This document shows positions 24,920-46,881 of a stretch of DNA of 64,000 nucleotides, one piece after another (within the stretch, counting starts at the first letter, position 1; each line of letters opens with the position of its first letter). The notes under the pieces were generated by a model. The model was not told the origin of the DNA, made no database searches, and saw nothing but the letters and a program-made list of their open reading frames with translations. The stretch is taken from contig NZ_NHOY01000071.1 in assembly GCF_002252755.1 (NCBI RefSeq), positions 1 to 64,000 on the forward strand, in the 5' to 3' direction. The position numbers were made by a program, and so were the translations under genes. Source of the stretch: Halorubrum sp. Hd13 (GTDB lineage: Archaea; Halobacteriota; Halobacteria; Halobacteriales; Haloferacaceae).

Positions 24920-25236
24920 GTGAACGCCCTCAAAGCCCCAGCCGCTCGGCTATAGGTGAGTGCCTCTGGATCGGTAGCGAACAGCTTCAAAGCCCCAGCC
25001 GCGACGACTCGCGCGGCTCGGTGCGCTCCTCGCTCGTTCGTTCCGCTCACTCGCTGCGGTGCTTCCGTCGCCGTGCTTCGCCCTCGCGGCTGCCCCTTTG
25101 AATCCACCCCGCACCGCACGCCTCCCCAGCCTCGTCGCTGGCGCCGGCGGCGCCAGCGACTCCCTCGCGCGTGCTCCTCGCACCCTGCGGGCGCTCGGAG
25201 GCACGCGCCACCGCAATTCCACTTCTATTTATAAAT
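24920..25236 (-). repeat. structured repeat element (putative ncRNA family), copy A
   Basis: Read on minus: TATA ATTTATAAAT (25227-25236); stem P1 GCGCGTGC (25201-25208) with GCACGCGC (25167-25174), enclosing a hairpin with CTCC/GGAG and CGCCC/GGGTG pairs; hairpin P2 with nine pairs (25137-25157, GCTGGCGCC arm); linker GAGGCTGGGGAGGCG (25119-25133); CAAAGGGGCAG (25090-25100); P3 closed by CCGCGA/TCGCGG (25084-25089 and 24999-25004) with a 79-base interior; then GGCTGGGGCTTTGAA (24986-25000). A second GGCTGGGGCTTTGAG module ends at 24920. One pair in the first hairpin is G-U only on minus. The same layout recurs in copy B with altered stems. No protein frame is supported. Confidence 0.7.
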
Positions 25237-27973: not shown

Positions 27974-28047
27974 GGGCCAATAGCTCAGTCAGGTTGAGCG
28001 CTCGGCTGATAACCGGGAGGTCCACGGTTCAAATCCGTGTTGGCCCA
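27974..28047 (+). tRNA. tRNA-Ile (GAT)
   Basis: A full cloverleaf of 74 bases: acceptor GGGCCAA/TTGGCCC, D-arm with AGCTCAGTCAGGTTGAGC, anticodon stem CTCGG/CCGGG with loop CTGATAA (anticodon GAT at 28008-28010), T-arm with GGTTCAAATCC. Discriminator A; CCA is not encoded. No intron. Confidence 0.97.
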
Positions 28048-28300
28048 CCTACAGCGTCCACGGTCTCTGGCCGTGGCGTGTTAGGGGCTGTACGCCTCCC
28101 CAGCCACCTAACTTCGTTCCTGTTCTCGATACTGACATGTTTTTCGAGGATTGATAGATAAACGATCCCCGACAAGTCACGCAATGACTGATACTCAATG
28201 GGCAGGTCCTCAGTCTAGTACTTTCCAGCGATTCACACGGTTCTATCTCGCGGTCGTGGATCCAGACGACTCTCTCACGAGCGCTCCGTCTGGAATACGC
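28048..28300. other. intergenic region with two overlapping hairpins after tRNA-Ile
   Basis: Hairpin 1 pairs TACAGC (28050-28055) with GCTGTA (28087-28092) around CCACGG/CCGTGG (28058-28063, 28071-28076). Hairpin 2 pairs GTTAGGGGCTG (28080-28090) with CAGCCACCTAAC (28101-28112), with one bulge. They share bases 28087-28090 and cannot form together. The loop of hairpin 2 carries ACGCCTCCCCAGCC (28092-28105), a 14-base core of the structured repeat. From 28113 to 28300 base composition is less GC-rich and no gene is supported. Confidence 0.55.
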
Positions 28301-46681: not shown

Positions 46682-46881
46682 TTATAAATGACTGGGCGGT
46701 GGCGCGTGCCTGTGAGCGGCCGCCCTCGGCGGCCGCGAGTCAGCACGCGCGAGGGAGCCCGCGGCCGCCGGCGGCGGCCGCGGCGAGGCTGGGGAGGCGC
46801 GAGGGGCTGTGCGGCTGCGGTCGGGTGGGACTCAAAGGGGCAGTCGCGAGTCCTCGCGGCTGGGGCTTCGGCGGTGTTCAC
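46682..46881 (+). repeat. structured repeat element (putative ncRNA family), copy B
   Basis: Read on plus: TATA TTATAAAT (46682-46689); stem P1 GCGCGTGC (46702-46709) with GCACGCGC (46743-46750) around a nine-pair hairpin (46716-46724 with 46728-46736); P2 nine-pair hairpin (46761-46769 with 46773-46781, GCGGCCGCC arm); linker GAGGCTGGGGAGGCG (46785-46799); CAAAGGGGCAG (46833-46843); P3 CGCGA/TCGCG (46845-46849, 46854-46858); tail GGCTGGGGCTT...GTTCAC (46858-46881). Linkers match copy A exactly or nearly so, while stems differ with pairing kept. No protein is supported. Confidence 0.7.

What the first reader, a model, noticed from the sequence alone, without database searches (positions are those of the whole stretch)
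24920..25236. Undescribed structured repeat family with compensatory changes: copy A against copy B
Copies at 24920-25236 (minus) and 46682-46881 (plus) share the linkers GCGCGTGC, GCACGCGCGAGGGAG, GAGGCTGGGGAGGCG, CAAAGGGGCAG and GGCTGGGGCTT, but the hairpins between differ. P2 is GCTGGCGCC paired in A and GCGGCCGCC paired in B: two positions changed on both arms with all nine pairs kept. The hairpin inside P1 is rewritten but still folds. P3 keeps its closing pairs while its interior goes from about 4 to 79 bases. A G-U pair in copy A exists only on the proposed RNA strand. Both copies begin with a TATA box. This pattern suggests selection on RNA (or single-strand) structure. As far as I know it matches no named family; that part cannot be checked here.
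Basis: partly seen in the sequence, partly recalled or inferred. Interest (0 to 1): 0.88.

Follow-up and report, generated by a model that had tools for sequence, protein, structure and literature searches.

The report
Haloarchaeal fold-conserved dispersed repeat family
The two repeats in this Halorubrum window belong to a large, apparently undescribed family of non-coding elements spread through many salt-loving archaea (1 to about 180 copies per genome), in which the folded shape is kept while the hairpin sequences are rewritten, even at one fixed chromosomal site.

Summary
Copies A and B are two of at least 80 in this Halorubrum genome. All 52 Halorubrum genomes searched carry 7-177 exact cores. 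A covariance model finds relatives in 120 of 243 haloarchaeal genomes and 37 of 77 genera; 123 comparable genomes give none. All 26 modelled pairs in P1 and P2 change on both sides. P3 is closed by C-G in Halorubrum and by G-C elsewhere, around an invariant GGG/GGG loop. At one orthologous site 21 of 25 species carry the element; the 15 P2 hairpins parsed there all differ, and 14 fold as the standard hairpin. Rfam has no match. Constraint on the fold of one strand is strongly supported; that the folding molecule is RNA is not. The TATA box is confined to Halorubrum, apical loops are DNA-type GNA/TNC triloops, and GNRA/UNCG are not enriched. Best reading: a vertically inherited, once-mobile, REPIN-like repeat recognised through its single-strand fold. 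It is not IS605/TnpB-linked. Expression, partner protein and function are unknown.

The parts
46682..46689 (+). Copy B: TATA-like box (TTATAAAT) before the element
   Evidence: TATA-like in 96/190 Halorubrum copies against 10 in a control window, 2/62 in other genera
46702..46750 (+). Copy B: P1 hairpin, outer stem GCGCGTG/CACGCGC, GA/GA internal motif, inner stem
   Evidence: P1 pairs change on both sides across copies
46751..46756 (+). Copy B: conserved joining segment GAGGGA
   Evidence: invariant columns; kept in other haloarchaeal families
46757..46784 (+). Copy B: P2 hairpin, GC-CGCGGCCGCC / GGCGGCCGCG-GC type
   Evidence: differs from P2 of all other species parsed at the same site
46785..46799 (+). 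Copy B: core GAGGCTGGGGAGGCG
46833..46870 (+). Copy B: P3, CAAAG-GGG-CAG / CTG-GGG-CTTCG closing, interior of about 4 nt
25227..25235 (-). Copy A: TATA-like box (TTTATAAAT)
25167..25208 (-). Copy A: P1 hairpin
25161..25166 (-). Copy A: joining segment GAGGGA
25134..25160 (-). Copy A: P2 hairpin GTCGCTGGCGCC / GGCGCCAGCGAC
25119..25133 (-). Copy A: core GAGGCTGGGGAGGCG
24988..25100 (-). Copy A: P3, CAAAG-GGG-CAGCC / GGCTG-GGG-CTTTG closing, long interior with GA-rich hairpin
24931..24987 (-). Copy A: tail unit ending in a second GGCTGGGGCTTTG; tails of one or more such units are seen in Halorubrum copies

Best explanation
A haloarchaea-wide family of dispersed, non-coding, fold-conserved repeats, comparable to REPINs or PATEs in how it lives in the genome. 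SHOWN: one strand has a conserved architecture (P1 - GAGGGA - P2 - TGGGGAGG core - G-rich joint - P3 closed around GGG/GGG). It sits between genes, often at the same site in different species. Stem sequences are replaced very fast while pairing and purine-rich joints stay. INFERRED: the element spread by copying through single strands and persists because a trans-acting factor recognises the fold and joints, not the stem sequence. Stem turnover comes from DNA-level processes (exchange between copies through the identical joints, fold-back copying, inversion of hairpin tips), filtered by selection for the fold. I think the recognised form is more likely single-stranded DNA than RNA, with the four conserved G-tracts perhaps forming a quadruplex in multimolar K+. 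The partner protein and the mobiliser are unknown.
For: Copy number, genus-wide presence and breadth. Covariation: 25/26 pairs and 442 double-change cells against 131 shuffled; 26/26 and 363 against 112 across genera; also in the unfitted MAFFT alignment. P3 closure: CAAAGGGGC..GGGGCTTTG in 108 Halorubrum copies against GAAAGGGGC..GGGGCTTTC in 27/27 others, with all four G-tracts present wherever P3 was matched at both ends. Strand specificity. No copy inside a gene in 85. gatE site occupied in 21/25 species with 15 distinct P2; sites shared with a relative about 90% identical and with named Halorubrum species. No association of P1 and P2 types within the genome (p = 0.57). GNA triloops 89 against 5.4 expected, TNC 32 against 1.9, GNRA 2 against 4.5, UNCG 0 against 2.2.
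Against: No new insertion was caught: in the part of the close relative examined, matched sites were occupied in both, and the 4 empty gatE sites are too diverged to show exact ends or a target sequence. No mobiliser was found. A mild bias to lie downstream of same-strand genes (47:23) would also suit an RNA element. G.T over A.C and GA pairs do not separate RNA from DNA. The quadruplex is not tested. P1-P2 shuffling was tested on only 37 copies.
Confidence: 0.5

Rival explanations
1. A multicopy structured non-coding RNA: each copy is transcribed, alone or as the 3' untranslated part of the gene before it, and the RNA fold is what is selected, for example as a protein-binding RNA.
For: Covariation and strand specificity. 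TATA-like box in about half of Halorubrum copies. Same-strand upstream gene 47:23. Single-step G.T intermediates are visible at the gatE site, such as GTTAG/CTGAC.
Against: No TATA box outside Halorubrum, and in Halorubrum it lies too close to P1. No enrichment of GNRA or UNCG loops; triloops of GNA type and of its reverse complement are equally enriched. G.T pairs are only about 3-5% of pairs. In the single-copy genus the element runs antisense within the cobalamin operon.
Confidence: 0.33
2. No selection on the fold: inverted repeats are kept perfect by template-switch (quasipalindrome) correction and by conversion between copies, so paired changes arise as single mutation events.
For: Perfect stems with 3-base loops far above chance, GNA and TNC equally enriched. 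Inverted hairpin tips in L047 and L184. Very fast turnover at fixed sites.
Against: Correction would erase tandem GA/GA and GGA/GGA mismatches, yet they recur at the same places and on one strand (98:16). Joints and the GGG/GGG loop are kept between families. Isolated G.T exceeds A.C. Fold kept across at least nine families.
Confidence: 0.12
3. A PATE or other non-autonomous derivative of IS200/IS605, or an omegaRNA of TnpB elements.
For: Haloquadratum PATEs are palindromic, short, variable and targeted by small SMR-A inserts in their palindromes (PMC3119063); here too small two-hairpin modules sit inside the elements.
Against: 10 of 50 Halorubrum genomes have no Y1 transposase match, and several of these carry many copies (G105 114, G119 107, G123 99, G133 99). 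None of the 12 TnpB and 12 Y1 loci checked bears the element, apart from one neighbour.
Confidence: 0.05

Closest known systems
REPINs / REP-RAYT populations of bacteria (PMC3116915, PMC2817692)
   Same: Tens to hundreds of extragenic copies per genome, hairpin-based, persistent, rarely linked to a transposase; inverted pairs occur in other haloarchaeal genera.
   Different: About 150-330 bases with three different hairpins and conserved joints, not one 20-40 base palindrome; stem sequence not conserved; no dependence on a Y1 transposase.
PATEs and SMR-A elements of Haloquadratum (PMC3119063)
   Same: Non-coding, palindrome-bearing, variable haloarchaeal repeats without terminal inverted repeats; small hairpin modules insert into them.
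   Different: PATEs have IS605-like near-terminal palindromes and recent insertions; here no IS605 link, no recent insertion seen, and a different, haloarchaea-wide architecture.
Structured non-coding RNA families as collected in Rfam
   Same: Covarying helices joined by conserved single-stranded segments.
   Different: No Rfam model matches, at gathering score or at E up to 1; no RNA-type tetraloops; no conserved promoter; up to about 180 copies per genome.
Integron attC sites (compared from general knowledge)
   Same: Fold of one DNA strand matters, stem sequence largely free.
   Different: Single recombination site next to gene cassettes and read by IntI; no such gene or cassette context was looked for or seen here.

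Membership tests
REPIN / REP-RAYT | Short repeat of a conserved palindrome, usually as an inverted pair | tested here: not met
   Stem sequences differ between copies while the fold is kept; mostly single copies in Halorubrum, inverted pairs in some other genera
REPIN / REP-RAYT | Dependence on a Y1 (RAYT) transposase in the genome | tested here: not met
   G105, G119, G133, G123, G111, G113 and G148 have many copies and no PF01797 match
REPIN / REP-RAYT | Many extragenic copies, vertically kept | tested here: met
   0 of 85 copies inside genes; same sites in related species
PATE / IS605 derivative | Near-terminal palindromes shared with IS605-type elements of the genome | tested here: not met
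   Model R1 finds no element at TnpB or Y1 loci, one chance neighbour
PATE / IS605 derivative | Strain-specific insertions without target duplication | tested here: inconclusive
   4 empty gatE sites found, flanks too diverged to read the junction; matched sites in the close relative occupied in both
Structured ncRNA | Covariation beyond chance on one strand | tested here: met
   shuffles and slid structures, not a tree-aware test
Structured ncRNA | Match to a known RNA family | tested here: not met
Structured ncRNA | Transcript with defined start and end | not testable with these tools
   no RNA-seq available; TATA box only in Halorubrum
Structured ncRNA | RNA-type hairpin tips (GNRA, UNCG) enriched | tested here: not met
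   GNRA 2 against 4.5 expected, UNCG 0 against 2.2 expected
TnpB omegaRNA | Lies at the 3' end of a tnpB gene | tested here: not met
   12 tnpB genes against at least 80 copies; one neighbour, on the other strand
Cobalamin or other riboswitch | Sense orientation in the leader of the regulated gene | tested here: not met
   In the single-copy genus it lies antisense between cbiF and cbiG; copies elsewhere sit in many different gene contexts

The most novel reading that the evidence does not exclude
A lineage-wide class of selfish or domesticated genetic element whose hereditary identity is a single-strand fold (three hairpins plus a four-tract G motif) and not a sequence, kept at fixed sites across haloarchaea while its stems are continually rewritten, and mobilised and recognised by an unknown haloarchaeal protein.
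Probability: 0.35. Interest if true: 0.92.

Novelty: new variant of a known kind. Interest (0 to 1): 0.82.

Why it matters
It gives haloarchaea, including the much-sequenced genus Halorubrum, an abundant repeat family that appears to have no name, with hundreds of natural experiments per genus on which bases of a fold are free and which are fixed. If the fold is read as single-stranded DNA, it points to an unknown archaeal mobiliser or binding protein. If as RNA, it is one of the most numerous structured RNAs in archaea. It also explains assembly breaks: about 10 of the 67 cores in this draft genome lie within 60 bases of a contig end.

Tried and rejected
(1) A seeming strand bias along chromosomes was a listing artefact; the full list for G105 shows mixed strands. 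(2) IS605/TnpB origin: rejected. (3) Rfam families at gathering and at E up to 1: none. (4) Cobalamin riboswitch, suggested by the single-copy loci L351, L352 and L358: rejected because the element is antisense to the operon. (5) Haloviruses: pattern hits in viral contigs were chance, in unrelated genomes. (7) Literature searches for the motifs and for haloarchaeal intergenic repeats found no description; most subscription papers and preprints are not held, so absence is not proof. (8) A first count of TATA boxes with a narrow window gave 40/102 and was replaced.

Full report
OBSERVATION. The core GAGGCTGGGGAGG occurs 67 times in this genome, against 2 for the reversed control. A covariance model from 30 copies finds 80. 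All 52 genomes of the genus carry 7 to 177 exact cores. Named records identify the genus as Halorubrum. Rfam has no match.

ANATOMY. Reading 5' to 3' on the element strand: P1, outer stem GGCGCGYGC / GYGCGC with a GA/GA internal motif and a variable inner hairpin; GAGGGA; P2, one of about ten hairpin types; GAGGCTGGGGAGGYGTGAGG; a G-rich stretch of variable length ending GGGnGGGACTC; P3, closed as CAAAG-GGG-CAGCC / GGCTG-GGG-CTTTG with an interior of a few to over 100 bases; then in Halorubrum a tail with further GGCTGGGGCTTTGG units and TATA-like boxes. Small two-hairpin modules of about 50 bases are nested at several places in the elements; 10 of 12 exact matches to one module motif in the genome lie in or beside an element.

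IS THE COVARIATION REAL? In 98 distinct copies fitted to the model, 25 of 26 pairs change on both sides and 442 cells do so, against 131 in shuffles; 92% of cells pair, against 19-59% when the structure is slid. In an ordinary MAFFT alignment of 30 copies, which was not fitted to the structure, the covariation score is 0.361 against 0.129. With other genera added, 26 of 26 pairs and 363 cells change on both sides, against 112. These controls do not model relatedness. P3, not in the model, gives an independent sign: 108 Halorubrum copies have CAAAGGGGC..GGGGCTTTG and 27 of 27 scored copies from other genera have GAAAGGGGC..GGGGCTTTC, a C-G to G-C swap in an otherwise constant frame.

BREADTH. 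A second model finds the family in 120 of 243 genomes of the order and 37 of 77 genera, in at least nine families; 123 haloarchaeal genomes give nothing, which serves as an internal control. Two genomes of one genus in family f17 have 123 and 115 copies, and three genomes of genus g46 have one or two. Reading the hits by eye confirms the frame TGGCGCGYGC-P1-GYGCGAGGGA-P2-GGYTGGGGAGG, in most of them followed by GGGTGGGACTGAAAGGGGC-P3-GGGGCTTTC. Plasmids of Halobaculum, Haloarcula and Halorussus also match, with no gene listed under the match in the annotated records.

PLACES ARE STABLE, STEMS ARE NOT. None of 85 copies lies inside a gene; the gene upstream is on the same strand in 47 and on the other in 23; convergent gaps (21) are commoner than divergent ones (9). 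At the copy B site, between gatE (named gatB in my notes; the family search names it gatE) and tRNA-Leu, 21 of 25 species have an element and 4 do not. Several share the same right-hand flank, yet all 15 P2 hairpins that could be parsed there are different; 14 fold as one standard hairpin and one (L176) as a disordered variant. In a relative about 90% identical, the matched sites with both flanks read are occupied in both, often with exchanged P1 or P2. Further shared sites occur in named Halorubrum species and in the more distant G105. P1 and P2 types are not associated within the genome (p = 0.57, n = 37), as expected if hairpins are exchanged through the identical joints.

RNA OR DNA? Three-base loops in P1 and P2 number 290 against 74 expected. 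GNA loops number 89 against 5.4 and TNC loops 32 against 1.9, so both are about 17-fold enriched, while GNRA (2 against 4.5) and UNCG (0 against 2.2) are not. From general knowledge, GNA triloops such as GCGAAGC are unusually stable in DNA, and structured RNAs favour GNRA and UNCG. Some hairpin tips are present inverted (L047 and L184). The TATA-like box is present in 96 of 190 Halorubrum copies but in 2 of 62 others, and is centred about 18 bases before P1, so that a start 26 bases on would lie inside the 5' arm. These points favour a DNA-level fold, but the same-strand bias and the G.T pairs would suit RNA, and no transcript data could be examined.

WHAT IT IS NOT. Y1 transposase genes are missing from 10 of 50 Halorubrum genomes, including ones with about 100 copies. 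TnpB and Y1 loci do not carry the element. Viral contig hits were chance. In the single-copy genus the element lies antisense between cbiF and cbiG, so it is not a riboswitch of that operon.

VERDICT. A real, large, apparently undescribed family with a conserved fold. The best reading is a vertically inherited, once-mobile repeat recognised by its single-strand fold. The four G-tracts, present in all 147 copies where P3 was matched at both ends, make a quadruplex plausible in the high-potassium cytoplasm, which is inference. The step from structure to function remains open.

Noticed in passing
L002, L007, L013, L026, L032, L036, L038, L040, L048, L055, L058, L066 (also L302, L348 in other genera): Two-hairpin modules of about 50 bases (perfect stems, GNA or TNC loops) nested at several points inside the elements, such as GTCGCCGGCG..CGCCGGCTGCCAGAG..CTCGCTG; they resemble SMR-A inserts into Haloquadratum PATEs.
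   Followed up: partly
L309, L302, L317, L073, L308, L289, L290: In several other haloarchaeal genera the elements come as inverted pairs, mostly head to head and some overlapping by about 10 bases.
   Followed up: partly
L333, L334, L340, L342, L344, L346, L356, L359, L360 (family f17): A variant without P3 that ends in a conserved TCGG..AGCTAGC-like motif; L333 shows two copies tail to tail around it.
   Followed up: no
L351, L352, L358 (genus g46): In genomes with one or two copies, a copy lies at the same place, antisense between cbiF and cbiG of the cobalamin operon.
   Followed up: partly
contigs C8, C17, C21, C40, C43, C62, C63, C90, C103, C116 of G000: Many contigs of this draft assembly end within about 60 bases of a core, so the true copy number is probably higher.
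   Followed up: partly
window 28093-28107 (-): GTGGCTGGGGAGGCG, one mismatch to the core, beside the tRNA at 27974-28047, without P1, P2 or P3: a remnant or chance.
   Followed up: partly
L184 (gatE site of G123) and L047: The tip of P2 is inverted (TCCGCTTCGCTCC for GGAGCGAAGCGGA in L184) while the outer stem is kept, as if the hairpin tip had been flipped at DNA level.
   Followed up: partly
L176 (gatE site of G122): Four to five tandem repeats of the core unit GAGGCTGGGGAGGTGT directly after P2.
   Followed up: no
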